The position numbers and the translations under genes are program-made. DNA of 64,000 nucleotides, taken from Anadara kagoshimensis (Eukaryota > Mollusca > Bivalvia > Arcoida > Arcidae). The DNA lies in the NCBI GenBank assembly GCA_021292105.1, contig CM037867.1, positions 42,609,843-42,673,842 on the forward strand. Reading direction: 5' to 3'. This document shows, in pieces, positions 23,050 through 59,359 of this stretch. The notes beneath the pieces are model-generated. The model ran no database searches. It was not told the DNA's origin and worked only from the letters and a program-made list of their open reading frames with translations. Position 1 is the stretch's first letter, and each line of letters opens with the position of its first letter.

Positions 23050-23749
23050 GGATGTTGTGCTTCATCCATTCTTTGAGTTATTTAATCTAGTACAAAATAA
23101 TCTTCACAATAACACTTAATGTATTTCAAAACATTCAACCTTATGGCAAGAACCAGTTGAAATTTAAAACATTCTTTTTTCCCCTTCTTTTATATTCCAA
23201 AGAAAATGAAACCATACCTTTTGTTATGCTGTATATTAAAATTGCTAAAATGTTGTGCATTTTTAGAACTTTTTAATTTTTAATTATTGATTATAATCTT
23301 TTCTTTGTTTAATTTATTTACTGTTAAATGTTGTTGCTTAAAATTATTATTATTTATTATTATTATTTAAAATAAACTTAATGTCTTTATTTTTTCATTA
23401 AAATTTTGGGATTTATATTTGCATTTTTGATTCAGTCATTCCACTGTAAGTGAAGAAAAAAATCTTTTATCAGCAGAATAACTCCGTAGTCCAATATGTT
23501 TTTGTATAATCAGAAAATGTCCATCTTGAAGAAATAAAAAACCTTATTGACTGCAGACCACCCATAACCAGTATTTGTGTTTATATGTATATACGTTATA
23601 TGATGTGGAATGATCCATTGATGGGATGTTATGTGTTTGTATAATGCTGTAACGACCAAATTGTTCCTATTGATATGTTATAAGAACAGCAGTTAGTGAC
23701 AGCTGTAACAATAGTTCAGAAGATTACATGGCACAGTGACATACAGAAC

Positions 23750-27393: not shown

Positions 27394-30300
27394 GGATCCA
27401 GCCCTGGTAGTGAGAGGCATTGTGATCCAGCCCTGGCAGTGAGAGGCATTGTGATCCAGCCTTGGTAGTGAGAGGCATTGTGATCCAGCCTTGGCAGTGA
27501 GAGGCATTGTGATCCAGCCCTGGCAGTGAGAAGCATTGTGTTCTGGCCTTTGCAGTGAGAGGCATTGTGATCCAGCCCTGGTAGTGAGAGGCATCGTGAT
27601 CCAGCCTTGGTAGTAAGAGGCATTGTGTTCCAGCCTTGGCAGTGAGAGGCATTGTGTTCTGGCCTTTGCAGTGAGAGGCATTGTGATCCAGCCCTGGTAG
27701 TGAGAGGTATTGTGATCCAGCCTTGGTAATACAAGGCATTGTGATCCAGCCCTGGTAGTGAGAGGCATTGTGTTCTAGCCTTTGCAGTGAGAGGCATTGT
27801 GATCCAGCCCTGGTAGTGAGAGGCATTGTGTTCTGGCCTTTGCAGTGAGAGGCATTGTGATCCAGCCCTGGTAGTGAGAGGCATTGTGTTCTGGCCTTTG
27901 CAGTGAGAGGCATTGTGATCCAGCTCTGGTAGTGAGAGGCATTGTGATCCAGCCCTGGCAGTGAGAGGCATTGTGTTCTGGCCTTTGCAGTGAGAGGCAT
28001 TGTGATCCAGCCTTGGTAGTGAGAGGCATTGTGTTCTGGCCGTTGCAGTGAGAGGCATTGTGATCCGGCCTTGGTAGTGAGAGGCATTGTGTTCCAGCCT
28101 TGGTAGTGAGAGGCATTGTGATCCAGCCTTGGCAGTGAGAGGCATTGTGATCCAGTCTTGGTAGTGAGAGGCATTGTGATCCAGCCTTGGTAGTGAGAGG
28201 CATTGTGATCCAGCCTTTGCAGTGAGAGCCATTGTGATCCAGCCTTGGCAGTGAAAGGCATTGTGATCCAGCCTTTGAAGTGAGAGGCATTGTGATCCAG
28301 CCTTGGCAGTGAGAGGCATTGTGATCCAACCTTTGCAATGGGAGGCATTTTGATCCAACCTTTGCAGTGAGAGGCATTGTGATCTAGCCTTTGCAGTGAG
28401 AGGCATTGTGATCCAGCCTTTGCAGTGAGAGGTATTGTGATCCGGCCTTTGCAGTGAGAGGCATTGTGATCCAGTCTTTGCAGTGAGAGGCACTGTGATC
28501 CAGCCTTGGCAGTGAGAGGCATTGTGATCTGGCCTTTGCAGTGAGAGGCATTGTAATTCAGCATTGGCAGTGAGAGGCATTGTGATCCAGCCTGGCAGTG
28601 AGAGGCATTGTGATCCAGCCTTGGTAGTGAGAGGCATTGTGATCCAGCCTTGGTAGTGAGAGGCATTGTGATCAAGCCTTGGTAGTGAGAGGCATTGTGA
28701 TCCAGCCTTGGCAGTAAGAGGCATTGTGATCCAGCCTTGGCAGTAAGAGGCATTGTGATCCAGCCTTGGTAGTGAGAGGCATTGTGATTCAGCCTTGGCA
28801 GTGAGAGGCATTGTGATTCAGCCTCGCAGTGAGAGGCATTGTGATCTAGCCTTGGCAGTGAGAGGTATTGTGATCTGACCTTGGCAGTGAAAGGTATTGT
28901 GATCTGGCCTTGGTAATGAGAGGCATTGTGATCCAGCATGGCAGTGAGAGGCATTGTGATCCAGCCTGGCAGTAAGAGGCATTGTGATCTAGCCTTTGCA
29001 GTGAGAGGTATTGTGATCTGGCCTTGGTAATGAGAGGCATTGTGATCCTGCCTGGCAGTGAGAGGCATTGTGATCCAGCCTGGCAGTAAGAGGCATTGTG
29101 ATCCAGCCTTTGCAGTGAGAGGTATTGTGATCTGGCTTTTGCAGTGAGAGGCATTGTGATCCAGCCTTGGTAGTGAGAGGCATTGTGATCCAGCCTTGGC
29201 AGTAAGAGGCATTGTGATCCAGCCTTGGTAGTGAGAGGCATTGTGATCCAGCCTTGGTAGTGAGAGGTATTGTGATCCAGCCTTGGTAATGAGAGGCATT
29301 GTGATGCAGCCTTGGTAGTGAGAGGCATTGTGATCCAGCCTTGGTAGTGAGAGGCATTGTGATCAAGCCTTGGTAGTGAGAGGCATTGTGATCCAGCCTT
29401 GGCAGTAAGAGGCATTGTGATCCAGCCTTGGCAGTAGAGGTATTGTGATCCAGCCTTGGTAGTAAGAGGCATTGTGATCCAGCCTTGGTAGTGAGAGGCA
29501 TTGTGAACCAGCCTTGGCAGTGAGAGGTCTTGTGATCTGGCCTTGGTAGTGAGAGGCATTGTGATCCAGCCTTGGCAGTAAGAGGTATTGTGATCAAGCC
29601 TTGGTAGTGAGAGGCATTGTGATCCAGCCTTGGTAGTGAGAGGCTTTGTGATCCAGCCTTGGCAGTGAGAGGCATTGTGATCTGGCCTTTGAAGTGAGAG
29701 GCATTGTGATCCAGCCTTGGCAGTAAGAGGCATTGTGATCCAGCCTTGGCATTGAGAGGCATTGTGATCCAGCCTTGGTAGTAAGGCATTGTGATCCAGC
29801 CTTGGTAGTGAGGCATTTTGATCCAGCCTTGGTAGTAAGAGGCATTGTGATCCAGCCTTGGTAGTAAGAGGCATTGTGATCCAGCCTTGGCAGTGAGAGG
29901 CATTGTGATCCAGCCTTGGCAGTAAGAGTTATTGTGATCCACCCTTGGTAGTGAGAGGCAGTGTGATCCAGCCTTGGTAGTGAGAGCCATTGTGTTCCAG
30001 CCTGGCAGTGAGAGACTTTGTGATCTGGCCTTGGTAGTAAGAGGCATTGTGATCCAGCCTTGGTAGTAGAGGCATTGTGATCCAGCCTTGGTAGTAAGAG
30101 GCATTGTGATCCAGCCTTGGTAGTGAGAGGCCTCTCACTGATCCAGCCTTGGTAGTGAGAAGCATTGTGATCCAGCCTTGGCAGTGAGAGGCATTGTGAT
30201 CCAGCCTTGGCAGTGAGAGGCATTGTGATCTAGCCTTGGTAGTAAGGGGCATTGTGATCCAGCCTTGGTATTAAGAGGCATTGTGATCCAGCCTTGGTAG

Positions 30301-31799
30301 TGAAAGGCATTGTGATCCAGCCTTGGTAGTGAGAGGCTTTGTGATCCAGCCTTGGTAGTAAGAGGCATTGTGATCCAGAATGGCAGTGAGAGGCATTGTG
30401 ATCCAGCCTTGGTAGTGAGAGGCATTGTGATCCAGCCTTGGTAGTGAGAGGCTTTGTGATCCAGCCTTGGTAGTAAGAGGCATTGTGATCCAGAATGGCA
30501 GTGAGAGGCATTGTGATCCAGCCTTGGCAGTGAGAGGCATTGTGATCCAGCTTTGGTAGTGAGAGGCATTGTGATCCAGCCTTGGTAGTAAGAGGCATTG
30601 TGATCCAGCCTTGGTAGTGAGAGGCATTGTGATCCAGCCTTGGCAATGAGAGGCATTGTGATCTGGCCTTGGTAGTGAGAGGCATTGTGATCCAGCCTTG
30701 GTAGTAAGAGGCATTGTGGTCCAACCTTGGAAGTGAAGGCATTGTGATCCAGCCTTGGCAGTAAGAGGCATTGTGATCCAGCCTTGGTAGTGAGAGGCAT
30801 TGTGATCCAGCCTTGGCAGTGAGAGGCATTGTGATCCAGCCTTGGTAGTGAGAGGCATTGTGATCCGGCCTTGGTAGTGAGAGGCATTGTGATCCAGCCT
30901 TGGTAATGAGAGGCATTGTGATCTGGCCCTGGTAGTGAGAGGCATTGTGATCCAGCCTTGGTAGTAAGAGGCATTGTGATCCAGCCTTGGCAGTGAGAGG
31001 CATTGTGATGCAGCCTTGGCAGTGAGAGGCATTGTGATCCTGCCTAGGTAGTAAGAGGCATTGTGATCCAGCCTTGGTAGTGAGAGGCCTCTCACTGATC
31101 CAGCCTTGGTAGTGAGAGGCATTGTTATCCAGCCTTGGTAATGAGAGGCATTCTGATCCAGCCTTGGCAGTGAGAGGCATTGTGATCCAGCCTTGGCATT
31201 GAGAGGCATTGTGATCCAGCCTTGGCAGTGAGAGGCATTGTGATCCAGCCTTGGTATTAAGAGGCATTGTGATCCAGCCTTGGTAGTAAGAGGCATTGTG
31301 AACTAGCCTTGGCAGTGAGAGGCATTGTGATCTAGCCTTGGCAGTGAGAGGCATTGTGATCAATCCTTGGCAGTGAAAGGCATTGTGATCCAGCCTTGGC
31401 AATGACAGGCATTGTGATCCAGCCTTGGCAGTGAGAGGCATTGTGATCCTGCCTTGGCAGTGAGAGGCATTGTGATCCGGCCTTGGCAGCAGTGAGAGGC
31501 ATTGTGATCCAGCCTTGGCAGTGAGAGGCATTGTGATCCAGCCTTGGCAGTGAGAGGCATTGTGATCCAGCCTTGGCAGTGAGAGGCATTGTGATCCAGC
31601 CTTGGCAGTGAGAGGCATTGTGATCAAGCCTTGGCAGTGAGAGGCATTGTGATCCAGCCTTGGCAGTGAGAGGCATTGTGATCCAGCCTTGGCAGTGAGA
31701 GGCATTGTGATCCAGCCTTGGCAGTGAGAGGCATTGTGATCTAGCCTTGACAATGACAGGCATTGTGATCCAGCCTTTGCAGTGAGAGGCATTGTGATC
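27394..31799. repeat. 29-bp minisatellite, about 150 copies
   Basis: The unit is GTGAGAGGCATTGTGATCCA then GCCTTGGTA, 29 bp, with GCCTTGGCA, GCCCTGGTA, GCCTTTGCA and TTCTGGCC variants. Left copies are richer in GCCTTTGCA and TTCTGGCC; right copies are mostly GCCTTGGCA and more uniform. All three minus-strand frames are open because 29 is not divisible by three, so three units make a 29-residue cycle. This explains the 200- to 650-codon overlapping minus-strand frames, which are not genes. Two copies of a palindromic junction (30122-30139 and 31079-31096) lie inside. Confidence 0.96.
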
Positions 31800-34879: not shown

Positions 34880-37800
34880 CTATCAGGATATCAATATAAT
34901 GGCTCAACACAGATACAACATTTATCTGGATATCAGTATAATGGCTCAACACAGATACAACATTTATCTGGATATCAGTATAATGGCTCAACACAGATAC
35001 AACATTTATCTGGATATCAGTATAATGGCTCAACACAGATACAACATTTATCAGGATATCAGTATAATGGCTCAACACAGATACAACATTTATCTGGATA
35101 TCAGTATAATGGATCAACACAGATACAACATTTATATGGATATCAGTATAATGGATCAACACAGATACAACATTTATATGGATATCAGTATAATGGCTCA
35201 ACACAGATACAACATTTATCTGGTTATCAGTATAATGGCTCAACACAGATACAACATTTATCTGGGTATCAGTATAATGGCTCAACACAGATACAACATT
35301 TATCTGGATATCAGTATAATGGCTCAACACAGATACAACATTTATCAGGATATCAGTATAATGGCTCAACACAGATACAACATTTATCTGGATATCAGTA
35401 TAATGGCTCAACACAGATACAACATTTATCTGGGTATCAGTATAATGGCTCAACACAGATACAACATTTATCAGGATATCAGTATAATGGATCAACACAG
35501 ATACAACATTTATCAGGATATCAGTATAATGGCTCAACACAGATACAACATTTATCTGGGTATCAGTATAATGGCTCAACACAGATACAACATTTATCTG
35601 GTTATCAGTATAATGGCTCAACACAGATACAACATTTATCAGGATATCAGTATAATGGCTCAACACAGATACAACATTTATCAGGATATCAGTATAATGG
35701 CTCAACACAGATACAACATTTATCTGGTTATCAGTATAATGGCTCAACACAGATACAACATTTATCAGGATATCAGTATAATGGATCAACACAGATACAA
35801 CATTTATATGGATATCAGTATAATGGATCAACACAGATACAACATTTATATGGATATCAGTATAATGGCTCAACACAGATACAACATTTATCTGGTTATC
35901 AGTATAATGGCTCAACACAGATACAACATTTATCAGGATATCAGTATAATGGCTCAACACAGATACAACATTTATCAGGATATCAGTATAATGGCTCAAC
36001 ACAGATACAACATTTATCAGGATATCAGTATAATGGCTCAACACAGATACAACATTTATATGGATATCAGTATAATGGCTCAACACAGATACAACATTTA
36101 TCAGGATATCAGTATAATGGCTCAACACAGATACAACATTTATCTGGATATCAGTATAATGGCTCAACACAGATACAACATTTATCAGGATATCAGTATA
36201 ATGGCTCAACACAGATACAACATTTATCAGGATATCAGTATAATGGCTCAACACAGATACAACATTTATCTGGGTATCAGTATAATGGCTCAACACAGAT
36301 ACAACATTTATCAGGGTATCAGTATAATGGCTCAACACAGATACAACATTTATCAGGATATCAGTATAATGGCTCAACACAGATACAACATTTATCAGGA
36401 TATCAGTATAATGGCTCAACACAGATACAACATTTATCTGGATATCAGTATAATGGCTCAACACAGATACAACATTTATCAGGATATCAGTATAATGGCT
36501 CAACACAGATACAACAATTATCAGGATATCAGTATAATGGCTCAACACAGATACAACATTTATCTGGGTATCAGTATAATGGCTCAACACAGATACAACA
36601 TTTATCAGGATATCAGTATAATGGCTCAACACAGATACAACATTTATCAGGATATCAGTATAATGGCTCAACACAGATACAACATTTATCTGGATATCAG
36701 TATAATGGCTCAACACAGATACAACATTTATCAGGATATCAGTATAATGGCTCAACACAGATACAACATTTATCTGATACCCGGCTCAACACAGATACAA
36801 CATTTATCTGGATATCAGTATAATGGCTCAACACAGATACAACATTTATCAGGATATCAGTATAATGGCTCAACACAGATACAACATTTATCAGGATATC
36901 AGTATAATGGCTCAACACAGATACAACATTTATCTGGGTATCAGTATTATGGCTCAACACAGATACAACATTTATCTGGTTATCAGTATAATGGCTCAAC
37001 ACAGATACAACATTTATCAGGATATCAGTATACAACATTTATCTGGATATCAGTATAATGGCTCAACACAGATACAACATTTATCAGGATATCAGTATAA
37101 TGGCTCAACACAGATACAACATTTATCAGGATATCAGTATAATGGCTCAACACAGATACAACATTTATCTGGGTATCAGTATAATGGCTCAACACAGATA
37201 CAACATTTATCAGGGTATCAGTATAATGGCTCAACACAGATACAACATTTATCAGGATATCAGTATAATGGCTCAACACAGATACAACATTTATCAGGAT
37301 ATCAGTATAATGGCTCAACACAGATACAACATTTATCTGGATATCAGTATAATGGCTCAACACAGATACAACATTTATCAGGATATCAGTATAATGGCTC
37401 AACACAGATACAACAATTATCAGGATATCAGTATAATGGCTCAACACAGATACAACATTTATCTGGGTATCAGTATAATGGCTCAACACAGATACAACAT
37501 TTATCAGGATATCAGTATAATGGCTCAACACAGATACAACATTTATCAGGATATCAGTATAATGGCTCAACACAGATACAACATTTATCTGGATATCAGT
37601 ATAATGGCTCAACACAGATACAACATTTATCAGGATATCAGTATAATGGCTCAACACAGATACAACATTTATCTGGGTATCAGTATAATGGCTCAACACA
37701 TACAACATTTATCTGGATATCAGTATAATGGCTCAACACAGATACAACATTTATCTGGATATCAGTATAATGGCTCAACACAGATACAACATTTATCAGG

Positions 37801-40800
37801 ATATCAGTATAATGGCTCAACACAGATACAACATTTATCTGGATATCAGTATAATGGCTCAACACAGATACAACATTTATCTGGATATCAGTATAATGGC
37901 TCAACACAGATACAACATTTATCTGGGTATCAGTATAATGGCTCAACACAGATACAACATTTATCAGGATATCAGTATAATGGCTCAACACAGATACAAC
38001 ATTTATCAGGATATCAGTATAATGGCTCAACACAGATACAACATTTATCTGGGTATCAGTATAATGGCTCAACACAGATACAACATTTATCAGGATATCA
38101 GTATAATGGCTCAACACAGATACAACATTTATCTGGGTATCAGTATAATGGCTCAACACAGATACAACATTTATCTGGATATCAGTATAATGGCTCAACA
38201 CAGATACAACATTTATCTGGATATCAGTATAATGGCTCAACACAGATACAACATTTATCTGGGTATCAGTATAATGGCTCAACACAGATACAACATTTAT
38301 CAGGATATCAGTATAATGGCTCAACACAGATACAACATTTATCTGGGTATCAGTATAATGGCTCAACACAGATACAACATTTATCAGGATATCAGTATAA
38401 TGGCTCAACACAGATACAACATTTATCTGGGTATCAGTATAATGGCTCAACACAGATACAACATTTATCTGGATATCAGTATAATGGCTCAACACAGATA
38501 CAACATTTATCTGGATATCAGTATAATGGCTCAACACAGATACAACATTTATCTGGGTATCAGTATAATGGCTCAACACAGATACAACATTTATCAGGAT
38601 ATCATTATAATGGCTCAACACAGATACAACATTTATCAGGATATCAGTATAATGGCTCAACACAGATACAACATTTATATGGATATCAGTATAATGGCTC
38701 AACACAGATACAACATTTATCAGGATATCAGTATAATGGCTCAACACAGATACAACATTTATCTGGATATCAGTATAATGGCTCAACACAGATACAACAT
38801 TTATCAGGATATCAGTATAATGGCTCAACACAGATACAACATTTATCAGGATATCAGTATAATGGCTCAACACAGATACAACATTTATATGGATATCAGT
38901 ATAATGGCTCAACACAGATACAACATTTATCAGGATATCAGTATAATGGCTCAACACAGATACAACATTTATCTGGGTATCAGTATAATGGCTCAACACA
39001 GATACAACATTTATCTGGATATCAGTATAATGGCTCAACACAGATACAACATTTATCTGGATATCAGTATAATGGCTCAACACAGATACAACATTTATCT
39101 GGGTATCAGTATAATGGCTCAACACAGATACAACATTTATCAGGATATCAGTATAATGGCTCAACACAGATACAACATTTATCTGGTATCAGTATAATGG
39201 CTCAACACAGATACAACATTTATCAGGATATCAGTATAATGGCTCAACACAGATACAACATTTATCAGGATATCAGTATAATGGCTCAACACAGATACAA
39301 CATTTATCTGGTTATCAGTATAATGGCTCAACACAGATACAACATTTATCAGGATATCAGTATAATGGCTCAACACAGATACAACATTTATCTGGGTATC
39401 AGTATAATGGCTCAACACAGATACAACATTTATCTGGATATCAGTATAATGGCTCAACACAGATACAACATTTATCTGGATATCAGTATAATGGCTCAAC
39501 ACAGATACAACATTTATCTGGATATCAGTATAATGGCTCAACACAGATACAACATTTATCAGGATATCAGTATAATGGCTCAACACAGATACAACATTTA
39601 TCTGGGTATCAGTATAATGGCTCAACACAGATACAACATTTATCAGGATATCAGTATAATGGCTCAACACAGATACAACATTTATCAGGATATCAGTATA
39701 ATGGCTCAACACAGATACAACATTTATCTGGGTATCAGTATAATGGCTCAACACAGATACAACATTTATCAGGATATCAGTATAATGGCTCAACACAGAT
39801 ACAATTTCTCTGGGTATCAGTATAATGGCTCAACACAGATACAACATTTATCTGGTTATCAGTATAATGGCTCAACACAGATACAACATTTATCAGGATA
39901 TCAGTATAATGGCTCAACACAGATACAACATTTATCAGGATATCAGTATAATGGCTCAACACAGATACAACATTTATCTGGTTATCAGTATAATGGCTCA
40001 ACACAGATACAACATTTATCTGGGTATCAGTATAATGGCTCAACACAGATACAACATTTATCTGGATATCAGTATAATGGCTCAACACAGATACAACATT
40101 TATCTGGATATCAGTATAATGGCTCAACACAGATACAACATTTATCTGGGTATCAGTATAATGGCTCAACACAGATACAACATTTATCAGGATATCAGTA
40201 TAATGGCTCAACACAGATACAAATTTATCAGGATATCAGTATAATGGCTCAACACAGATACAACATTTATCAGGATATCAGTATAATGGCTCAACACAGA
40301 TACAACATTTATCTGGGTATCAGTATAATGGCTCAACACAGATACAACATTTATCTGGATATCAGTATAATGGCTCAACACAGATACAACATTTATCTGG
40401 ATATCAGTATAATGGCTCAACACAGATACAACATTTATCTGGTATCAGTATAATGGCTCAACACAGATACAACATTTATCAGGATATCAGTATAATGGCT
40501 CAACACAGATACAACATTTATCTGGGTATCAGTATAATGGCTCAACACAGATACAACATTTATCAGGATATCAGTATAATGGCTCAACACAGATACAACA
40601 TTTATCTGGGTATCAGTATAATGGCTCAACACAGATACAACATTTATCTGGATATCAGTATAATGGCTCAACACAGATACAACATTTATCTGGATATCAG
40701 TATAATGGCTCAACACAGATACAACATTTATCTGGGTATCAGTATAATGGCTCAACACAGATACAACATTTATCAGGATATCAGTATAATGGCTCAACAC

Positions 40801-41915
40801 AGATACAACATTTATCAGGATATCAGTATAATGGCTCAACACAGATACAACATTTATATGGATATCAGTATAATGGCTCACACAGATACAACATTTATAT
40901 GGATATCAGTATAATGGCTCAACACAGATACAACATTTATCTGGATATCAGTATAATGGCTCAACACAGATACAACATTTATCAGGATATCAGTATAATG
41001 GCTCAACACAGATACAACATTTATCAGGATATCAGTATAATGGCTCAACACAGATACAACATTTATCTGGATATCAGTATAATGGCTCAACACAGATACA
41101 ACATTTATCATGGATATCAGTATAATGGCTCAACACAGATACAACATTTATCTGGATATCAGTATAATGGCTCAACACAGATACAACATTTATCAGGATA
41201 TCAGTATAATGGCTCAACACAGATACAACATTTATCAGGATATCAGTATAATGGCTCAACACAGATACAACATTTATCAGGATATCAGTATAATGGCTCA
41301 ACACAGATACAACATTTATCTGGGTATCAGTATAATGGCTCAACACAGATACAACATTTATCTGGATATCAGTATAATGGCTCAACACAGATACAACATT
41401 TATCTGGATATCAGTATAATGGCTCAACACAGATACAACATTTATCTGGATATCAGTATAATGGCTCAACACAGATACAACATTTATCTGGATATCAGTA
41501 TAATGGCTCAACACAGATACAACATTTATCAGGATATCAGTATAATGGCTCAACACAGATACAACATTTATCTGGATATCAGTATAATGGCTCAACACAG
41601 ATACAACATTTATCTGGATATCAGTATAATGGCTCAACACAGATACAACATTTATCTGGATATCAGTATAATGGCTCAACACAGATACAACATTTATCTG
41701 GATATCAGTATAATGGCTCAACACAGATACAACATTTATCTGGATATCAGTATAATGGCTCAACACAGATACAACATTTATCTGGATATCAGTATAATGG
41801 CTCAACACAGATACAACATTTATCTGGATATCAGTATAATGGCTCAACACAGACAGATACAACATTTATCTGGATATCAGTATAATGGCTCAACACATAC
41901 ACCATTTATCTGGGA
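34880..41915. repeat. 7-kb 42-bp minisatellite, about 168 copies
   Basis: The unit is TATCAGTATAATGGCTCAAC then ACAGATACAACATTTATCTGGA (42 bp, 14 codons). Copies are nearly identical. Variation is concentrated at one short window (TCAGGA, TCTGGA, TCTGGG, TCTGGT, TATGGA) and at GGCTCA/GGATCA. Two plus-strand frames (14-residue cycles MAQHRYNIYLDISI and GYQYNGSTQIQHLS) and one minus-strand frame (cycle VLSHYTDIQINVVS) stay open for hundreds of codons, giving frames up to 1131 codons. About ten small indels (near 36776, 37030, 37695, 39183, 39803, 40220, 40440, 40878, 41109, 41850) shift the frame. Openness on both strands and tolerance of frameshifts argue against coding. Confidence 0.96.
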
Positions 41916-47743: not shown

Positions 47744-49423
47744 ATACATGGAAACATACCTCTTTTATACATGGAAACCCACCTCTTTTATACATGGAAA
47801 CCCACCTCTTTCATGGGCTTGTGTTTTTAGGTTGTCTGTACATGGAAACTCACCTCTTTCATGGGCTTGTGTTTTAGGTTGTCTGTACATGGAAACCCAC
47901 CTCTTTCATGGGCTTGTGTTTTAGGTTGTCTGTACATGGAAACCCACCTCTTTTATACATGGAAACCCATCTCTTTTATACATGGAAACCCACCTCTTTT
48001 ATACATGGAAACCCACCTCTTTTATACATGGAAACCCACCTCTTTTATACATGGAAACCCATCTCTTTTATACATGGAAACCCACCTCTTTCATGGGCTT
48101 GTGTTTTTAGGTTGTCTGTACATGGAAACCCACCTCTTTCATGGGCTTGTGTTTTTAGGTTGTCTGTACATGGAAACCCAACTCTGTCATGGGCTTGTGT
48201 TTTTAGGTTGTCTGTACATGGAAACCCACCTCTTTCATGGGCTTGTGTTTTTAGGTTGTCTGTACATGGAAACCCACCTCTTTCATGGGCTTGTGTTTTT
48301 AGGTTGTCTGTACATGGAAACCCACCTCTATCATGGGCTTGTGTTTTTAGATATACATGGAAACTCACCTCTGTCATGGGCTTGTGTTTTTAGATATACA
48401 TGGAAACCCACCTCTTTCATGGGCTTGTGTTTTTAGGTTGTCTGTACATGGAAACCCATCTCATTTATACATGGAAACCCATCTCTTTTATACATGGAAA
48501 CCCACCTCTTTTATACATGGAAACCCACCTCTTTTACACATGGAAACCCACCTCTTTCATGGGGTTGTGTTTTTAGGTTGTCTGTACATGGAAACCCACC
48601 TCTTTCATGGGCTTGTGTTTTAGGTTGTCTGTACATGGAAACCCACCTCTTTCATGGGCTTGTGTTTTAGGTTGTCTGTACATGGAAACCCACCTCTGTC
48701 ATGGGCTTGTGTTTTAGATATACATGGGAACCCACCTCTGTCATGGGCTTGTGTTGTTAGATATACATGGAAACCCACCTCTGTCATGGGCTTGTGTTTT
48801 TAGATATACATGGAAACCCACCTCTTTCATGGGCTTGTGTTTTAGATATACATGGAAACCAACCTCTTTCATGGGCTTGTGTTTTTATATACATGGAAAC
48901 CCACCTCTTTCATGGGCTTGTGTTTTTAGGTTTCTGTACATGGAAACCCACCTCTTTCATGGGCTTGTGTTTTTAGATATACATGGAAACCCACCTCTTT
49001 CATGGGCTTGTGTTTTTAGATATACATGGAAACCCACCTCTTTCATGGGCTTGTGTTTTTAGATATACATGGAAACCCACCTCTTTCATGGGCTTGTGTT
49101 TTTAGATATACATGGAAACCCACCTTTTTCATGGGCTTGTGTTTTTAGATATACATGGAAACCCACCTCTGTCATGGGCTGGTGTTTTTAGATATACATG
49201 GAAACCCACCTCTTTCATGGTCTTGTGTTTTTAGATATACATGGAAACCCACCTCTGTCATGGGCTTGTGTTTTTAGATATACATGGAAACCCACCTCTT
49301 TCATGGGCTTGTGTTTTTAGATATACATGGAAACCCACCTCTTTCATGGGCTTGTGTTTCTAGGTTGTCTGTACATGGAAACCCACCTCTTTAATGGGCT
49401 TGTGTTTTTTGGTTGTCTGTACA
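47744..49423. repeat. Modular minisatellite built from 23-, 43- and 50-bp units
   Basis: Every unit carries TACATGGAAACCCACCTCTT. In short units (about 23 bp) it is followed directly by TTA. In longer ones it is followed by TCATGGGCTTGTGTTTTTAG and then either ATA or GGTTGTCTG. Short units cluster at 47765-47830, 47940-48080 and 48460-48540. GGTTGTCTG units dominate the left half and ATA units the right half. Several overlapping 70- to 190-codon frames result and are not genes. Confidence 0.94.
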
Positions 49424-50650: not shown

Positions 50651-52857
50651 ACAAGTGGTGAGTATAGCTGGTGAAACACAAGGTGTTTATCCTTTTGGAG
50701 TGTCCTGTCTCATTTCCTTGGTGAAAGTTCACTTTACAAGTGGTGAGTATAGCTGGTGAAACACGAGGTGTTTATCCTTTTGGAGTGTCCTGTCTCATTT
50801 CCTTGGTGAAGGTTCACTTTACAAGTGGTGAGTATAGCTGGTGAAACACGAGGTGTTTATCCTTTTAGAGTGTCCTGTCTCATTTCCTTGGTGAAAGTTC
50901 ACTTTACAAGTGGTGAGTATAGCTGGTGAAACACGAGGTGTTTATCCTTTTGGAGTGTCCTGTCTCATTTCCTTGGTGAAAGTTCACTTTACAAGTGGTG
51001 AGTATAGCTAGTGAAACACGAGGTGTTTATCCTTTTGGAGTGTCCTGTCTCATTTCCTTGGTGAAGGTTCACTTTACAAGTGGTGAGTATAGCTAGTGAA
51101 ACACGAGGTGTTTATCCTTTTGGAGTGTCCTGTCTTATTTCCCTGGTGAAAGTTCACTTCACAAGTGGTGAGTGTAGCTGGTGAAACATGAGGTGTTTAT
51201 CCTTTTGGAGTGTCCTGTCTCATTCCCCTGGTGAAAGTTCACTTCACAAGTGGTGAGTGTAGCTGGTGAAACACAAGGTGTTTATCCTTTTGGAGTGTCC
51301 TGTCTCATTCCCCTGGTGAAAGTTCACTTCACAAGTGGTGAGTGTAGCTGGTGAAACACGAGGTGTTTATCCTTTTGGAGTGTCCTGTCTCATTCCCCTG
51401 GTGAAAGTTCACTTCACAAGTGGTGAGTGTAGCTGGTGAAACATGAGGTGTTTATCCTTTTGGAGTGTCCTGTCTCATTCCCCTGGTGAAAGTTCACTTC
51501 ACAAGTGGTGAGTGTAGCTGGTGAAACACAAGGTGTTTATCCTTTTGGAGTGTCCTGTCTCATTCCCCTGGTGAAAGTTCACTTCACAAGTGGTGAGTGT
51601 AGCTGGTGAAACACGAGGTGTTTATCCTTTTGGAGTGTCCTGTCTCATTCCCCTGGTGAAAGTTCACTTCACAAGTGGTGAGTGTAGCTGGTGAAACACG
51701 AGGTGTTTATCCTTTTGGAGTGTCCTGTCTCATTCCCCTGGTGAAAGTTCACTTCACAAGTGGTGAGTGTAGCTGGTGAAACACGAGGTGTTTATCCTTT
51801 TGGAGTGTCCTGTCTCATTCCCCTGGTGAAAGTTCACTTCACAAGTGGTGAGTGTAGCTGGTGAAACATGAGGTGTTTATCCTTTTGGAGTGTCCTGTCT
51901 CATTCCCCTGGTGAAAGTTCACTTCACAAGTGGTGAGTGTAGCTGGTGAAACACAAGGTGTTTATCCTTTTGGAGTGTCCTGTCTCATTCCCCTGGTGAA
52001 AGTTCACTTCACAAGTGGTGAGTGTAGCTGGTGAAACACGAGGTGTTTATCCTTTTGGAGTGTCCTGTCTCATTCCCCTGGTGAAAGTTCACTTCACAAG
52101 TGGTGAGTGTAGCTGGTGAAACACGAGGTGTTTATCCTTTTGGAGTGTCCTGTCTCATTCCCCTGGTGAAAGTTCACTTCACAAGTGGTGAGTGTAGCTG
52201 GTGAAACATGAGGTGTTTATCCTTTTGGAGTGTCCTGTCTCATTCCCCTGGTGAAAGTTCACTTCACAAGTGGTGAGTGTAGCTGGTGAAACACGAGGTG
52301 TTTATCCTTTTGGAGTGTCCTGTCTCATTCCCCTGGTGAAAGTTCACTTCACAAGTGGTGAGTGTAGCTGGTGAAACACGAGGTGTTTATCCTTTTGGAG
52401 TGTCCTGTCTCATTCCCCTGGTGAAAGTTCACTTCACAAGTGGTGAGTGTAGCTGGTGAAACATGAGGTGTTTATCCTTTTGGAGTGTCCTGTCTCATTC
52501 CCCTGGTGAAAGTTCACTTCACAAGGGGTGAGTGTAGCTGGTGAAACACGAGGTGTTTATCCTTTTGGAGTGTCCTGTCTCATTTCCCTGGTGACAGTTC
52601 ACTTCACAAGTGGTGAGTGTAGCTGGTGAAACACGAGGTGTTTATCCTTTTGGAGTGTCCTGTCTCATTTCCTTGGTGAAAGTTCATTTTACAAGTGGTG
52701 AGTATAGCTGGTGAAACAGGGGGTGTTTATCCTTTTGGAGTGTCCTGTCTCATTCCCCTGGTGAAAGTTCACTTCACAAGTGGTGAGTGTAGCTGGTGAA
52801 ACACGAGGTGTTTATCCTTTTGGAGTGTCCTGTCTCATTTCCTTGGTGACAGTTCAC
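50651..52857. repeat. 85-bp minisatellite, about 26 copies
   Basis: The unit opens ACAAGTGGTGAGTATAGCTG and includes GGTGTTTATCCTTTTGGAGT and GTGAAAGTTCACTT, with starts at 50651 and 50736. Outer units carry GAGTATAG and CATTTCCTTGG. The central run (about 51165-52600) carries GAGTGTAG and CATTCCCCTGG, indicating homogenisation from the middle. A cycling ACATG/ACACA/ACACG marker gives a partial 255-bp higher-order period. Each unit has a donor-like GGTGAGT and a small self-complementary segment (CACTTxACAAGTG). Confidence 0.95.
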
Positions 52858-54650: not shown

Positions 54651-54655
54651 GGTTT
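54651..54655. repeat. Target-site duplication, left copy (GGTTT)
   Basis: GGTTT lies immediately outside the LTR at 54656 and is matched exactly by GGTTT at 59355-59359. A perfect 5-bp duplication is the expected integration footprint of a Ty3/gypsy integrase. Confidence 0.9.
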
Positions 54656-54852
54656 TGTAAAAGTTTGATATCTGATAACAAACACGTCAAGCTGCTTCCA
54701 TGTGCTTTATTATAACTGATTAGACCATGCGGTCTACACAAGCTACAGTGACGTCAATCTGACGTCATACCAATATGTGTGACGCAGCACACAAAAGTAA
54801 CATTGAATCAAAGTACTGAAAGTAATGATGTTAGAGTCAATATACTGTTACA
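54656..54852 (-). repeat. 3' LTR (197 bp)
   Basis: It is identical to the copy at 59158-59354 except for ACTGATT versus ACTAATT and GATGTTA versus GATGTCA. It carries the paired TGACGTCA sites and a minus-strand AATAAA. Confidence 0.96.
54706..54711 (-). terminator. Polyadenylation signal AATAAA in the 3' LTR
   Basis: The plus strand reads TTTATT at 54706-54711, which is AATAAA in the element's orientation, about 50 bp before the LTR end. Its place after the CRE pair fits the R/U5 side of a short LTR. A functional role is inferred. Confidence 0.65.
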
Positions 54853-54865
54853 TCTCCTTTTCTTT
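54853..54865 (-). other. Polypurine tract for plus-strand DNA priming
   Basis: On the minus strand this reads AAAGAAAAGGAGA, directly abutting the 3' LTR. The position and all-purine composition are those expected of the second-strand primer in LTR retrotransposons. Confidence 0.85.
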
Positions 54866-54997
54866 ACGGAATAAAGCAGATTTATATATATACATAGCAA
54901 ATTGAAAATTCTGAAATTAATACCTCTGATACTTTCAGGAATACAAACATATTTAATAACAACAAAACACTAAACTGTTTTTACAGACAAAGTGCAC

Positions 54998-57900
54998 CTA
55001 ATCTTGGTACCTACTAGGGAGTTTGATAACTCTACCCGATCTTGTGACACGCGGTGTAGACTCCGTAGACTTTTCGGCTTTCTGCGGATTTTTAGACTGA
55101 GGCTTAGATTCCGATTCAGACGTTGTGATGGGAACGGACTCGAATGATTCTATGAACGGTTCGGAGGGTGGAAGGTTCACTTGGAATGGTTCCGGTGTCT
55201 GTTTAAGGTGATTTCTGTTGCGACGTAAAGTTTGACCCGATTCCGTCATAATATCATAAGACCTAATATCGCACTTGTTCTTGACAATGCCTTTTGTCCA
55301 TTCGGGACTGTTCTGTGGTTGTATGCGGACTGTTTCGCCCATTTTTAAATCGGGGAGACTCCGCGACTGATTGTTGTAATAAACGGCCTGTCGCTTCTTG
55401 CTATCACATAACTTCTCGTAAACATTATTCGGAATTTCCGGTTTAAGTTTAGACGATTTTATCGGTAACAAGGTCCGCGTTTGTCTGTTCATGAGTTGCT
55501 GAGCCGGGCTGAAACGAGTAGCCTGTGACGGCGTGTTGCGAAAATTAAGAATCGCCAAATACGGATCGCTGTTTGAATGTTTTGCTTTTTTCATCAACCT
55601 TTTGGCCGTTTTGACGGCGTTTTCTGCTTTGCCATTCGAGCGTGGATAACGGGGGCTCGATGTAATATGTTTGAATCCCCATTCTTTACTAAAAGTTTTG
55701 AAACGATCGGATGTATATTGCGGACCGTTGTCCGACACAACGGTTTCAGGGATGCCGTGCCGGGCAAAGTGTTGTTTCAGCTTGTGCACAACTGTTTTGG
55801 ATTGGGTGTCATACAGCCTATCGACTTCAAAGAAATTACTGAAGTAGTCTACAGTTATCAAATAATCCTTGTCAGCAAATTTAAAAAGGTCGGTACCAAC
55901 TTTAGCCCAAGGGCGGTCAATTATATCGTGAGAAAGAAGCGGTTCTTTCGGCTGGCTCATTTCGTATGTGCGACATGTTTCGCAATGCCCAATGAAATCT
56001 TTGATTTCTGCTGTCATACTCGGCCAGTATACTGAATCACGAGCACGCTGTAAACAACCATTAACACCAATATGCGTATGTAGTTGCTCCAAAACCGTAG
56101 GTCTAAGCGATTTAGGGATCACGCATCTATCACCTCGAAAAATAATTCCTCCCTGAACGGATAATTCATCTTTGACACATTCATAGGGCTTTACATCAGG
56201 GGGGATATTTGTTTTATCCCATCCTTTACAAATAACAGTAATGAGATTTTGTAAAGTCTCATCCTTTGCAGTTTCGGTGATTATATCGCTAAGCTGCCTT
56301 TCTGAAACGACGAGATAGTCTGCCATACATATTTGCTCGACTTCGTGTTCGATACTACCGACAACTAATACTTCGTCGCGTAATTCCGAAATTCGTCCTG
56401 CTTGAAGGATGTAAGCCCGGGATAGAGTATCCGCAACATACATGTACTTTCCAGGCTTATACACAAGATCCATATCATAACGCTGAAGTCTCAGCATCAT
56501 TCGCTGTAATCGTTTCGGTGCCTGATACAACGGCTTTTTATAGATTATTTCTAGTGGTTTGTGATCGTTTTCGACCAAGATTTTTCTACCATAAGTATAC
56601 TGATGGAATTTTTCCATCCCAAAAACCACTGATAAAAGCTCTTTCTCAATTTGGGCATAATTTTGTTCCGTTCGCGTAAGAGCACGACTGGCATAAGATA
56701 TCGGTTGCCCATTTTGTAATAGGACGCAGCCAAGGCCAGTTTCGGACGCATCGGACTGAAGCACGGTTTCCGCCTTGGAATCAAAATACTTAAGTACGGG
56801 TGCCTGGCTTATCGCTGTCTTAAGCTTCTCGAAAGCTTCGTCGTGTTCAAAAGTCCATTTGAATTCCACACCTTTCCGAACTAGTTGTCGAAGTGGCTCG
56901 CATATATCACTGAGACTAGATACAAACTTTGCAAGATAGTTCGCCGTACCGAGCAAACGATGGACTGCAGCGACATCTGCCGGTTTTTCCATCTTGACAA
57001 TGGCTTCGATTTTTGACGGATCTGGTTTTATCCCGTCAGTTGTGAGTAGGTGTCCGATGAACTCGGTTTCGCAAAGTCTGAGCTTAAGCTTGTCTTTGTT
57101 AAGCTTTATGTTCCGTTCGCTACATCGATTAAGAAGCATACGTAGATTTTTGTCATGATCAGCGACAGCTTCGTCATACGTATCGCCCTCACCATAGACT
57201 AAGATATCATCCGCGACGGTTCGACACCCGGGGAGACCCGCTAATTCATGTTCCAAATATTTCTGGAAATATTCCGGCGCTGGGGAAATTCCAAATGGCA
57301 TTCGCAGCCAGCGAAATCTACCGAATGGCGTTTCAAACGTGGTGAGGAAGCTTGAGCTCTCATCCAAAGCAACATGCCAAAACCCGTTTTTAACATCGCA
57401 TTTGGAAAATACTTTTGCTTTGCCTAATTCAGGCAGAAGATCTTCCAGGATCGGTAACGGATAGTGATTTCTTTTTAACGCTTTATTAAGCGGCTTAGGA
57501 TCAATGCATATCCGAAGTTTTCCGTTCGGTTTTTTTACAACAACTAAACTCGACACCCAGTCGGTAGGGGTATCGACCCGCTTTATTACTTCTAGCTTTT
57601 CTAGCCTCGCGAGTTCTTTCTCAAGCTTCGGTTTAATCGCGATCGGCACACGTCGAAGGGGTGTTTTTACTGGGGGGACTGTAGGATCTATGTCGAGGTG
57701 CAATTTATCTGAAAAACAACCTTCGCCTGAAAATACATGAGAAAAATTTTGCATAATGTCATGAAACAGTTTGTCTGTATCATTCTCAACACCTACATGC
57801 ATAATATTCTGATACTGAATTTTAATCAAATTCATCTCTTGAATAGAAGAAGATCCAAGAAGAGGCTCAAAACCATTATCAACAATGACAAATCTTACCA

Positions 57901-59029
57901 TATAACGTTCGTGAGTTTTAGGATTTTTCAGTCTTAGTGAACACACACCCTTAGCTGTAATCTTAGAACTGTCATACAAAGACAAAGTTTTACTGGTCTT
58001 TTCTATCAAATGTTCTGGGACATACTTCACTGGTAACAAATTTACCGTTGCCCCACTATCCAATTGAAAACGGACCGTCTGACGCTGATCAACAAGGAGC
58101 ATATTTGCGAAAATCTTATTTTGAACAATATTTACAGTGTCTGTCACTGAGAGAATGTCAGATTCCGAATCAGATTCTGACGTTTCTAAGTTCCGAACAA
58201 CTTCCTGTCTGCACACTTTTGCGAAATGATTAAACTTGCCGCAGTTTTTGCAAGTTTTGCCATATGCGGGACATTTACCGCGCTCACAGTTCTGTCCACA
58301 GTATTTGCACCTCCGACGTTTTGAACGTTTATCGACCTCTTTAAATTTCGATACATTCCGCTCATTATCGTGAGTTTGCTTCCGGCTCTTTGATTCTCGT
58401 TGAAACTTCTTTTGCACCAGACTAACTTCCTCAGATTCGATGCTATTGCCACCAGCAGCCATTTGCTTTACACGTGCCGATGTCGCCTCAAATGCTCTAC
58501 CCATATCGAGTGCTTTTTGGAGTGTTAATTTGTCTTCCTGTAGGAGGCGTTTTCTGAGAGTATTATCCCGAATACCACACACTATTCTGTCTCGAATTAG
58601 GTCGTCTTCCAAATTACCATAGTTACATGTTTTAGCAAGTTTTCTTAATGAAGCCACATAATTATCAATATTTGTTCCTTCTGTTTGACTGGAAGTATTA
58701 AACAAATAGCGTTCATAGGTCTCATTGGACTTTCCTATGCAAAAATTTTCAAATTTCTCAATTACCTTATGAATATCCTTATCATCGTCCGGATTCTCGA
58801 ACGTAAAGCCCTCGAAAACATCCATGGCCTCTGTACCAATACACGTCAAGAATGTCGCCGCCCGCAGATTACCATCTAGTTTATCAAGTCCAGTTGCGGT
58901 TTCATAATGATTCCATGACCTCTTGAACTTTCGCCAGTTACTTTCAACGTTCGAATCCATCTCCAGTTTTGCAGGTATTGGCAAATTTGCTATAGCGTGT
59001 TGCCGCTGTGGAGCTACTTCTTCGCCCAT
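54998..59029 (-). CDS. Gag-Pol polyprotein of a Ty3/gypsy retrotransposon (1343 aa)
   Basis: It encodes capsid-like Gag plus all replication enzymes in one frame. The Gag-like part is residues 1-235. Zinc knuckles span 241-273: the second is canonical (C260, C263, H268, C273); the first has four Cys (241, 244, 248, 253), with Cys where His is usual. The protease has FQLDSGAT with Asp324. Reverse transcriptase (about 450-630) has Asp545 and the VADD box with Asp607/Asp608. RNase H (about 750-870) has QSDAS (Asp760), IEKELL (Glu795/797) and NDHKPL (Asp822). Integrase has an H2C2 zinc region (983-1019) and a D,D35E core (Asp1047, Asp1100, Glu1136), then a basic C-terminal domain containing WTKGIV. 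The length is normal for a fused gag-pol without env. The ATG at 59029 is chosen as the first in frame, 128 bp after the primer site. No stop or frameshift interrupts it. Confidence 0.97.
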   Translation of the reverse strand: MGEEVAPQRQHAIANLPIPAKLEMDSNVESNWRKFKRSWNHYETATGLDKLDGNLRAATFLTCIGTEAMDVFEGFTFENPDDDKDIHKVIEKFENFCIGKSNETYERYLFNTSSQTEGTNIDNYVASLRKLAKTCNYGNLEDDLIRDRIVCGIRDNTLRKRLLQEDKLTLQKALDMGRAFEATSARVKQMAAGGNSIESEEVSLVQKKFQRESKSRKQTHDNERNVSKFKEVDKRSKRRRCKYCGQNCERGKCPAYGKTCKNCGKFNHFAKVCRQEVVRNLETSESDSESDILSVTDTVNIVQNKIFANMLLVDQRQTVRFQLDSGATVNLLPVKYVPEHLIEKTSKTLSLYDSSKITAKGVCSLRLKNPKTHERYMVRFVIVDNGFEPLLGSSSIQEMNLIKIQYQNIMHVGVENDTDKLFHDIMQNFSHVFSGEGCFSDKLHLDIDPTVPPVKTPLRRVPIAIKPKLEKELARLEKLEVIKRVDTPTDWVSSLVVVKKPNGKLRICIDPKPLNKALKRNHYPLPILEDLLPELGKAKVFSKCDVKNGFWHVALDESSSFLTTFETPFGRFRWLRMPFGISPAPEYFQKYLEHELAGLPGCRTVADDILVYGEGDTYDEAVADHDKNLRMLLNRCSERNIKLNKDKLKLRLCETEFIGHLLTTDGIKPDPSKIEAIVKMEKPADVAAVHRLLGTANYLAKFVSSLSDICEPLRQLVRKGVEFKWTFEHDEAFEKLKTAISQAPVLKYFDSKAETVLQSDASETGLGCVLLQNGQPISYASRALTRTEQNYAQIEKELLSVVFGMEKFHQYTYGRKILVENDHKPLEIIYKKPLYQAPKRLQRMMLRLQRYDMDLVYKPGKYMYVADTLSRAYILQAGRISELRDEVLVVGSIEHEVEQICMADYLVVSERQLSDIITETAKDETLQNLITVICKGWDKTNIPPDVKPYECVKDELSVQGGIIFRGDRCVIPKSLRPTVLEQLHTHIGVNGCLQRARDSVYWPSMTAEIKDFIGHCETCRTYEMSQPKEPLLSHDIIDRPWAKVGTDLFKFADKDYLITVDYFSNFFEVDRLYDTQSKTVVHKLKQHFARHGIPETVVSDNGPQYTSDRFKTFSKEWGFKHITSSPRYPRSNGKAENAVKTAKRLMKKAKHSNSDPYLAILNFRNTPSQATRFSPAQQLMNRQTRTLLPIKSSKLKPEIPNNVYEKLCDSKKRQAVYYNNQSRSLPDLKMGETVRIQPQNSPEWTKGIVKNKCDIRSYDIMTESGQTLRRNRNHLKQTPEPFQVNLPPSEPFIESFESVPITTSESESKPQSKNPQKAEKSTESTPRVTRSGRVIKLPSRYQD

Positions 59030-59144
59030 GATTGGGATAAATAATATAATGTCAAATCAATGTCATTAAAAAAAGGCACAAATTATCATCAAACCTGACT
59101 CATCGCTGCCGCATACTGTCATGCTACGTGCTATAGACCAGTTT
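59030..59144 (-). other. 5' leader between primer site and gag-pol start
   Basis: This is the untranslated leader of the retrotransposon RNA and the probable location of packaging signals, although none is recognised. It has no upstream frame of note. Confidence 0.5.
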
Positions 59145-59157
59145 ACTTCTGACACCA
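59145..59157 (-). other. Primer binding site, tRNA-Leu type
   Basis: The plus strand reads ACTTCTGACACCA directly next to the 5' LTR. That is the 3' end, with CCA, of animal tRNA-Leu as I remember it, so the element RNA carries the complement TGGTGTCAGAAGT. Thirteen bases match without a gap; the next base outward does not. Confidence 0.8.
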
Positions 59158-59354
59158 TGTAAAAGTTTGATATCTGATAACAAACACGTCAAGCTGCTTC
59201 CATGTGCTTTATTATAACTAATTAGACCATGCGGTCTACACAAGCTACAGTGACGTCAATCTGACGTCATACCAATATGTGTGACGCAGCACACAAAAGT
59301 AACATTGAATCAAAGTACTGAAAGTAATGATGTCAGAGTCAATATACTGTTACA
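59158..59354 (-). repeat. 5' LTR (197 bp), element promoter
   Basis: It begins TGT and ends ACA and sits upstream of gag-pol in the element's orientation. It contains the tandem TGACGTCA sites at 59251-59269, a small AGACCATGCGGTCT hairpin at about 59224-59237 and a minus-strand AATAAA at 59208-59213. Confidence 0.96.
59251..59269. promoter_or_regulatory. Paired CRE-like sites (TGACGTCA x2) in the 5' LTR
   Basis: Two perfect palindromic TGACGTCA octamers lie at 59251-59258 and 59262-59269, separated by ATC. The same pair is at 54749-54756 and 54760-54767 in the 3' LTR. TGACGTCA is the full cAMP-response element bound by CREB/ATF factors in animals. Use by this element is an inference from position in the probable U3 region. 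Confidence 0.7.
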
Positions 59355-59359
59355 GGTTT
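59355..59359. repeat. Target-site duplication, right copy (GGTTT)
   Basis: It matches 54651-54655 exactly. Joining the flanks would restore a continuous CCAGGTTTTTGTAG host sequence. Confidence 0.9.

What the first reader, a model, noticed from the sequence alone, without database searches (positions are those of the whole stretch)
54651..59359. Young, structurally complete Ty3/gypsy element that may still be mobile
The two 197-bp LTRs differ at only two positions (about 99 percent identity by my count), the 5-bp target duplication is perfect, and the 1343-codon gag-pol frame has no stop or frameshift. Primer site and polypurine tract are intact. LTRs are identical at insertion, so this insertion is recent on an evolutionary scale.
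Basis: partly seen in the sequence, partly recalled or inferred. Interest (0 to 1): 0.7.

Follow-up and report, generated by a model that had tools for sequence, protein, structure and literature searches.

The report
Young Steamer-type gypsy retrotransposon, CRE-bearing LTRs
The window holds a recently inserted, structurally complete jumping gene of the Steamer-like gypsy kind, an ordinary find in itself, but its promoter region carries two perfect cAMP-response sites that recur in unrelated LTRs of the same genome and may say how such elements are switched on.

Summary
In detail: two 197-bp LTRs differing at 2 sites, a perfect 5-bp duplication (GGTTT), a 1343-codon gag-pol frame open on the minus strand, and intact PBS and PPT. 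It is a Ty3/gypsy element with the structural hallmarks of the bivalve Steamer group and its sister branches; the exact branch could not be tested. "Recent" is supported; "may still be mobile" only partly. At least 13 further LTR-paired copies, all with perfect 5-bp duplications and 0-2% LTR divergence, show recent family activity. Variants shared by copies look purified (21 nonsynonymous, 47 synonymous, no stops), and two pairs of copies share frameshifts at unrelated sites, so broken templates were copied in trans. But 0 of 19 other copies examined has an undamaged frame. Transcripts and polymorphism are untested. Unexpectedly, each LTR carries two perfect CREB/ATF sites (TGACGTCA) about 100 bp upstream of the PBS; the octamer recurs in 6 of 17 mutually unalignable LTR groups (0.09 expected). 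Ordinary element; interesting promoter lead.

The parts
54651..54655 (.). target site duplication GGTTT (left)
59355..59359 (.). target site duplication GGTTT (right)
59158..59354 (-). 5' LTR, 197 bp, TGTAACA...TTTTACA
54656..54852 (-). 3' LTR, 197 bp
59262..59269 (.). CRE octamer TGACGTCA, 5' LTR, distal
59251..59258 (.). CRE octamer TGACGTCA, 5' LTR, proximal
54760..54767 (.). CRE octamer, 3' LTR
54749..54756 (.). CRE octamer, 3' LTR
59208..59213 (-). AATAAA, putative poly(A) signal, 5' LTR (also 54706-54711 in the 3' LTR)
59145..59157 (-). primer binding site TGGTGTCAGAAGT, complementary to CCA plus a tRNA 3' end (Leu by the literature, and by my reading of L100)
54998..59029 (-). single gag-pol ORF, 1343 aa
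   Evidence: examined in pieces
58271..58309 (-). first nucleocapsid finger (CCCC type, by motif)
58211..58252 (-). CCHC zinc knuckle
   Evidence: (E 0.023, below cut-off)
58049..58060 (-). protease DSGA motif
   Evidence: RVP and Asp_protease_2 weak
57050..57538 (-). reverse transcriptase (RVT_1, E 3e-23); active-site motif VADD at 57206-57217
56477..56857 (-). RNase H
55964..56119 (-). integrase H2C2 domain
55643..55900 (-). integrase core (rve), D-53-D-35-E
54853..54865 (-). polypurine tract AAAGAAAAGGAGA

Best explanation
This is a complete, recently inserted LTR retrotransposon of the Ty3/gypsy superfamily with the anatomy of the Steamer group and its sister C-clade branches. It copies itself by the usual route: transcription from U3 of the 5' LTR, one Gag-Pol polyprotein, priming of the minus strand from tRNA-Leu at the PBS and of the plus strand from the PPT, and integration with a 5-bp staggered cut (anatomy shown; steps inferred from established gypsy biology). 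Its family was active recently, with defective copies also mobilised in trans. Transcription is probably driven by CREB/ATF-type bZIP factors at the paired CREs in U3 (inferred). Whether this copy can still move is open.
For: LTRs, TSD, PBS, PPT and ORF. Domains. Best solved relative Ty3. Family: 13 further LTR pairs, 14 of 14 with perfect 5-bp TSDs, 16 differences over 14 pairs. Shared variants 21 non, 47 syn, 0 stop against private 202, 95, 15 (Fisher P 3e-8; neutral expectation 2.66 non per syn). Shared frameshifts at unrelated sites: 57188 and 55355 in C12a and C15, 58883 and 58377 in C12b and C18. CRE: 4 in the window, all in the LTRs, 0.34 expected; cross-family recurrence.
Against: No other copy examined has an undamaged frame (0 of 19). 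No transcript or polymorphism data. Steamer branch placement not tested. The RT motif reads VADD, not YxDD, though all 17 sister RT pieces share it and the 20 pieces of a second family read LVDD. CREs are sequence matches; no binding or activity was measured, and 5 of 17 LTR groups lack even the half site.
Confidence: 0.9

Rival explanations
1. The copy is complete but silent and fixed: a recent fossil that is methylated or otherwise repressed and no longer moves.
For: All 19 other copies examined are damaged; Steamer elements are reported as rare and of weak dynamics (PMC8905726, passages). About 13 window-only changes have accumulated.
Against: Frame, active-site residues, PBS, PPT and both LTRs are intact. 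5 of 14 LTR pairs of the family have no difference.
Confidence: 0.45
2. Apparent youth reflects gene conversion between LTRs rather than a recent insertion.
For: One copy (C12b) shows a mosaic relation to C12c and C18 that suggests conversion among copies.
Against: In the window copy the internal window-only change rate (13 of 4305) agrees with the LTR divergence, and all 14 LTR pairs are young together.
Confidence: 0.06
3. The broken frames of sister copies are partly base errors of the assembly, so more intact copies exist than seen.
For: In the youngest copies private indels rival or exceed substitutions (C15: 4 indels, 0 substitutions). In a second family 5 of 20 pieces of 1.9 kb have indels, one of them 9 small ones against 2 substitutions (L115).
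Against: 12 of those 20 loci have full open frames of 1382-1384 codons, and 15 of the 20 pieces, the reference included, have no indel against it. Pairs of frameshifts are shared between independent insertions.
Confidence: 0.15
4. The subfamily arrived recently by horizontal transfer from another aquatic animal, as proposed for Steamer-like elements.
For: Low divergence of all LTR pairs. Transfer between species has been proposed for this group (Metzger et al. 2018, recalled; known here only as cited in PMC8905726).
Against: The genome holds a graded series of relatives at 79, 77, 72, 67, 58 and about 50% RT identity, which fits long residence of the wider group. No other species' sequences could be searched.
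Confidence: 0.1

Closest known systems
Steamer (Mya arenaria) and the Steamer family of bivalves (PMC8905726, section 9 part 1 of 2 and passages seen)
   Same: 4.7 kb against 4543-4968 bp; LTR 197 against 153-219 bp; LTR start TGTAACA; PBS TGGTGTCAGAAG directly after the LTR; single gag-pol ORF; few full-size copies
   Different: LTR end TTTTACA (majority TTAAACA in the paper); no CATN/NATG insertion bias (1 of 28 half-sites) as reported for Mya Steamer (PMC10663159, passages); 14 LTR-paired copies of one subfamily, some with internal deletions or insertions, against 9 at most per subfamily in the paper; branch not tested
MchSLE1 of Mytilus chilensis (PMC11046912, PMC10974842, passages seen)
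   Same: 4758 bp, LTR 185 bp, one ORF of 1376 aa, CCCC plus CCHC fingers, DSG protease
   Different: MchSLE1 is described with an Asn tRNA PBS and a YxDD box; here the Leu-type PBS and VADD
C9 and C10 C-clade branches (PMC8905726, passages)
   Same: share size, LTR length and ends, and PBS with Steamer according to the paper
   Different: can only be told apart by a tree; not testable here
Yeast Ty3 (PDB 4ol8, 7q5b)
   Same: RT-RNase H-integrase order and homology
   Different: distant; different host, LTRs and (recalled) primer
Mouse IAPLTR1/1a (PMC9729108, passages seen) and HTLV-1 (named there)
   Same: perfect CRE (TGACGTCA) in the LTR; in IAP it gives methylation-sensitive CREB1 activation
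   Different: mammalian retroviral elements; here only the motif is shown

Membership tests
Ty3/gypsy (Metaviridae) LTR retrotransposon | LTRs, TSD, PBS, PPT | tested here: met
Ty3/gypsy (Metaviridae) LTR retrotransposon | pol order RT, RNase H, integrase | tested here: met
Ty3/gypsy (Metaviridae) LTR retrotransposon | Gag zinc knuckle and aspartic protease | tested here: inconclusive
   motifs CCHC and DSGA present; Pfam scores below cut-off
Steamer family | element size, LTR length, LTR start TGTAACA | tested here: met
   4699 bp, 197 bp, TGTAACA against the ranges
Steamer family | PBS TGGTGTCAGAAG immediately after the 5' LTR | tested here: met
Steamer family | single gag-pol ORF | tested here: met
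Steamer family | RT/RNase H tree within the Steamer branch, apart from C9 and C10 | not testable with these tools
   no Steamer reference sequence came up in the collections used; the paper says only a tree decides
Steamer family | CATN(5 bp)NATG insertion bias (reported for Mya Steamer) | tested here: not met
   1 of 28 half-sites, 14 sites of which two are one duplicated site
Steamer family | YxDD box (as described for MchSLE1) | tested here: not met
   VADD in the window and in 17 of 17 sister pieces
Retrovirus | env gene | tested here: not met
   145 bp between the stop codon and the 3' LTR
Element still mobile | transcription, polymorphic insertion | not testable with these tools
   no RNA or population data

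The most novel reading that the evidence does not exclude
A CREB/ATF (CRE) module fixed about 90-145 bp upstream of the tRNA-Leu PBS is a shared switch of gypsy C-clade elements in this animal: it recurs in LTRs that no longer align. It would couple their transcription to cAMP or stress signalling and to loss of CpG methylation, and would give Steamer-type elements an IAP-like route to reactivation, for instance in neoplastic haemocytes.
Probability: 0.4. Interest if true: 0.55.

Novelty: new member of a known kind. Interest (0 to 1): 0.38.

Why it matters
Steamer amplifies in transmissible cancer of soft-shell clams (5-11 insertion sites per healthy sample, 275-460 per cancer sample; PMC10663159, passages), and why it is switched on is open as far as I know. 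A recently active subfamily with one complete copy, a graded series of relatives and a repeated CRE module in U3 gives a concrete, cheap test: does CREB/ATF activity or loss of methylation at this CpG-containing site drive the LTRs? The element itself is ordinary.

Tried and rejected
An indel-prone reverse transcriptase as the cause of the many single-base deletions. Some of the youngest copies show as many private indels as substitutions or more. But internal pieces carry 80 private ORF indels in 74,002 aligned columns (1.08 per kb), and the LTR pairs, which cannot record errors of the founding reverse transcription, carry 3-4 indels in 5516 bases (about 0.5-0.7 per kb), not clearly fewer. 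Another family has one locus with 9 indels. Post-insertion change or assembly error suffices; a modest excess is not excluded.

An empty or duplicated insertion site in the same assembly. No empty site was found.

Naming the host. 1.115 Gb in 36 contigs, 18 of the contigs C1-C19 seen at 37.7-75.6 Mb, and an element group found almost only in bivalves (PMC8905726) suggest a bivalve with 19 chromosomes. A text search on assembly size gave 0 papers, and of the 8 bivalve genome notes listed (abstracts seen) none has this size. The cox1 hits lie inside a 59-Mb contig; my attempt to read one was out of frame. Host left as inference.

ARAGORN found no tRNA in 4 loci around PBS-matching sites. Rfam called a tRNA at 6 of the 8 sites in 5 loci; at the own sites of L098 and L104 it called none. 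I read L100 as an intron-bearing Leu(CAA) gene, which would explain the miss (my reading, no call).

The CRE as a blind discovery. Among all 8-mers the octamer is the top one (6 of 17 groups), but in 200 shuffles some 8-mer also reached up to 6 (mean 4.3). The case therefore rests on the octamer having been named beforehand from the window: 5 of the 16 other groups.
Full report
Observation. A 197-bp direct repeat at 54656-54852 and 59158-59354 differs at 2 of 197 positions, both transitions. It is flanked by GGTTT on both sides and encloses one ORF of 1343 aa at 54998-59029 on the minus strand. The element therefore runs right to left: 5' LTR 59158-59354, PBS 59145-59157, ORF, PPT 54853-54865, 3' LTR 54656-54852. 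Length LTR to LTR is 4699 bp.

Coding content, examined in pieces. Pfam finds reverse transcriptase (E 3e-23), RNase H (E 1e-31 and 9e-29), integrase H2C2 (5e-14) and integrase core (2e-12), all above curated cut-offs. Zinc knuckle and protease are below cut-off, but a CCCC-like finger, a CCHC finger and DSGA are present. The best solved relative is yeast Ty3. The integrase triad is D-53-D-35-E. The RT motif is VADD where Ty3 has YLDD. All 17 sister RT pieces have VADD and the 20 pieces of another family of the genome LVDD, so this is a family trait, not damage. There is no room for env: 145 bp separate the stop from the 3' LTR.

Primer. The 13 bases after the 5' LTR are complementary to CCA plus ACTTCTGACA. 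The assembly has 35 exact matches to GGTTCGANTCCNACTTCTGACA and none to the reversed control. Five of the fetched loci hold 8 of these sites; Rfam calls a tRNA at 6 of the 8, ARAGORN none in the 4 loci given to it. That the tRNA is Leu rests on the published Steamer PBS and my reading of L100.

The family in its own genome. The LTR search scored 40 of 86 candidates, so counts are lower bounds. Thirteen further pairs of LTRs were read with their flanks. All 13 have perfect 5-bp duplications (two of them, C12b and C12c, share one site and are a segmental duplication). LTR differences run 0 to 4 of 197; over the 14 pairs 16 differences, 5 pairs with none. Two solo LTRs with their own 5-bp duplications are present (L035, L040). 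So the window copy is one of a cohort of young insertions, not the youngest.

Integrity of the other copies. Protein pieces were searched in the genome, and pieces of 19 other copies were compared with the window. The window frame is 1352 codons stop to stop. Each of the 19 others has at least one frame-breaking ORF indel, 1 to 19 by this alignment (the high counts of C3, and the excluded 5' piece of C19b, come from pieces disrupted by insertions), and 6 of the 19 also have stop substitutions. C10 is represented by one piece, C13 by two. Two 5' pieces (C19b first piece, C3) were left out of the variant counts. A few further fragments of the subfamily seen (for example C14:28667, C14:26323, C10:32393, C5:42250) were not fetched; their rows are partial matches. 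Thus 0 of 19 is undamaged in this assembly. Base errors of the assembly may account for part of this: some of the youngest copies have private indels but no private substitutions (C15: 4 and 0; C12a: 1 and 0). In a control family of the same genome 15 of 20 pieces (reference included) are free of indels, 5 are not, one of these with 9.

Selection and trans help. Against the window, ORF variants found in two or more copies number 47 synonymous, 21 nonsynonymous and 0 stop. Private ones number 95, 202 and 15. With the observed spectrum neutrality predicts 98.7, 262.6 and 18.8 for the whole set. Shared against private differ at P 3e-8 (Fisher). The shared class includes changes on the window's own branch. 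The absence of shared stops alone is weak (3.4 expected, P 0.03). The reading is ordinary for LTR elements: source copies were kept functional, inserted copies decay. C12a and C15 share two frameshifts, and so do C12b and C18, at insertion sites with different duplications; of these four, 55355 is also found in C16b. Some broken templates were therefore copied by proteins supplied in trans, which needs a working source not long ago. C12b also shows a mosaic with C12c that suggests gene conversion, so conversion is an alternative for that pair.

Age. Two differences in 197 give d 0.010 with a Poisson range of 0.0012-0.037. With assumed rates of 1e-9 to 1e-8 per site and year this is 5 to 0.5 million years, range 0.06-18 (the rates are assumptions). 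Thirteen window-only changes in 4305 internal bases (0.30%, criterion: at least 80% of copies differ, C4 among them) agree. The nearest copy is on C4, sharing 10 derived sites.

Closest known group. The bivalve Steamer family is described (PMC8905726, section 9 part 1 of 2 and passages) as 4543-4968 bp, LTRs 153-219 bp starting TGTAACA, PBS TGGTGTCAGAAG directly after the LTR, single gag-pol ORF. All these are met. The paper adds that sister branches C9 and C10 share these traits and that only a tree decides; I had no reference sequences, so I file it as Steamer-type C-clade, not as Steamer. MchSLE1 of Mytilus chilensis (PMC11046912, passages) shares the two fingers and DSG but is described with an Asn tRNA PBS and YxDD. 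Mya Steamer favours CATN/NATG around the duplication (PMC10663159, passages); here 1 of 28 half-sites fits.

A promoter feature not in the finding. TGACGTCA occurs 4 times in the 64-kb window, all four in the two LTRs, 0.34 expected, 0 of 100 shuffles with 4. Of 32 sister LTR pieces 29 keep both octamers and 3 keep one. Genome-wide, TGACGTCA 90-120 bp before TGGTGTCAGA gives 92 matches and its reversed control 0; a palindrome of the same letters gives 0, its reversed control 1. Those 92 include many copies of a few families and some LTRs counted twice for their two octamers. I therefore took 31 5' pieces of C-clade relatives (the window, 10, 20) chosen by protein match, not by this motif. 25 have a PBS-like site; 6 have none and were dropped. 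The 25 fall into 17 groups whose 230 bp upstream of the PBS do not align at my threshold. The full octamer stands in 6 of 17 (shuffle mean 0.09, none of 1000 reaches 6), and TGACGT or ACGTCA in 12 of 17 (mean 2.2, maximum 7). In 11 of the 12 a motif ends 64-145 bp before the PBS; in L169, which has two candidate PBSs, it ends 184-198 bp before the one used. The stretch just downstream of the PBS (16-110 bp per group) has none. Five of 17 groups have neither form. As a blind search over all 8-mers the count of 6 is not beyond shuffles (maximum 6); the test counts because the octamer was fixed beforehand from the window.

Meaning of the CREs. In mouse IAPLTR1/1a the same octamer activates the LTR through CREB1 when CpG methylation is lost, and accounts for half of reporter activity (PMC9729108, passages). 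HTLV-1 is named there too. MchSLE1 is induced by BrdU in haemocytes (PMC11046912, passages). I found no report of CREs in Steamer-type LTRs in four library searches (listings), and the main texts of PMC11046912 and PMC10974842 have no occurrence of CREB. Most subscription papers are not held, and I did not see the original Steamer paper. Function is inferred from the motif alone.

Verdict. Observation confirmed; a young, complete copy of a known kind of element. Recent family activity well supported, present mobility open. The CRE module is the part worth a second look.

Noticed in passing
L041 (G000:C1:14386500-14395600): Tandem array of about 1.5-kb units, 99.7-99.9% alike between neighbours, six of which each contain 177 of the 197 LTR bases plus 3.4 copies of a 114-bp repeat: a satellite that has taken in an LTR of this family.
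   Followed up: partly
L115-L134 (20 pieces, own genome): A second C-clade family (about 50% RT identity) with near-identical copies; 12 of the 20 loci taken have open frames of 1382-1384 codons. It looks more recently active than the family of the finding.
   Followed up: partly
G000:C12:17421585-17426287 and 17691359-17696066: Two copies with the same duplication and similar flanks (left 97.7%, right 99.0% over 1.6 kb, with an overlapping right piece at 94.4%: segmental duplication), yet one has 18 private substitutions and the other 1, and frameshift sharing conflicts between the two halves: probable gene conversion.
   Followed up: partly
window 964-3654, 16067-23050, 27395-31799, 34881-41913, 47789-49409, 50651-52857: The window is packed with minisatellite arrays (units about 23-85 bp, up to about 170 copies). 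They probably explain the long overlapping ORFs and odd Pfam scores there.
   Followed up: no
G000:C4:4487676-4537603: Three cox1-like places within 50 kb of a 59-Mb contig, probably nuclear copies of mitochondrial DNA.
   Followed up: no
window 55577-56035, strand +: A 152-aa ORF antisense to the integrase. MchSLE1 is reported to have an antisense transcript with a 67-aa ORF (PMC10974842, passages); no link was tested and chance is likely.
   Followed up: no
C15 (L051, L070, L089), C1b (L049, L067, L087), C15b (L059, L078, L096), L115: Small deletions, mostly single-base, are common relative to substitutions in some young copies; assembly base errors or a real deletion bias, not resolved.
   Followed up: partly
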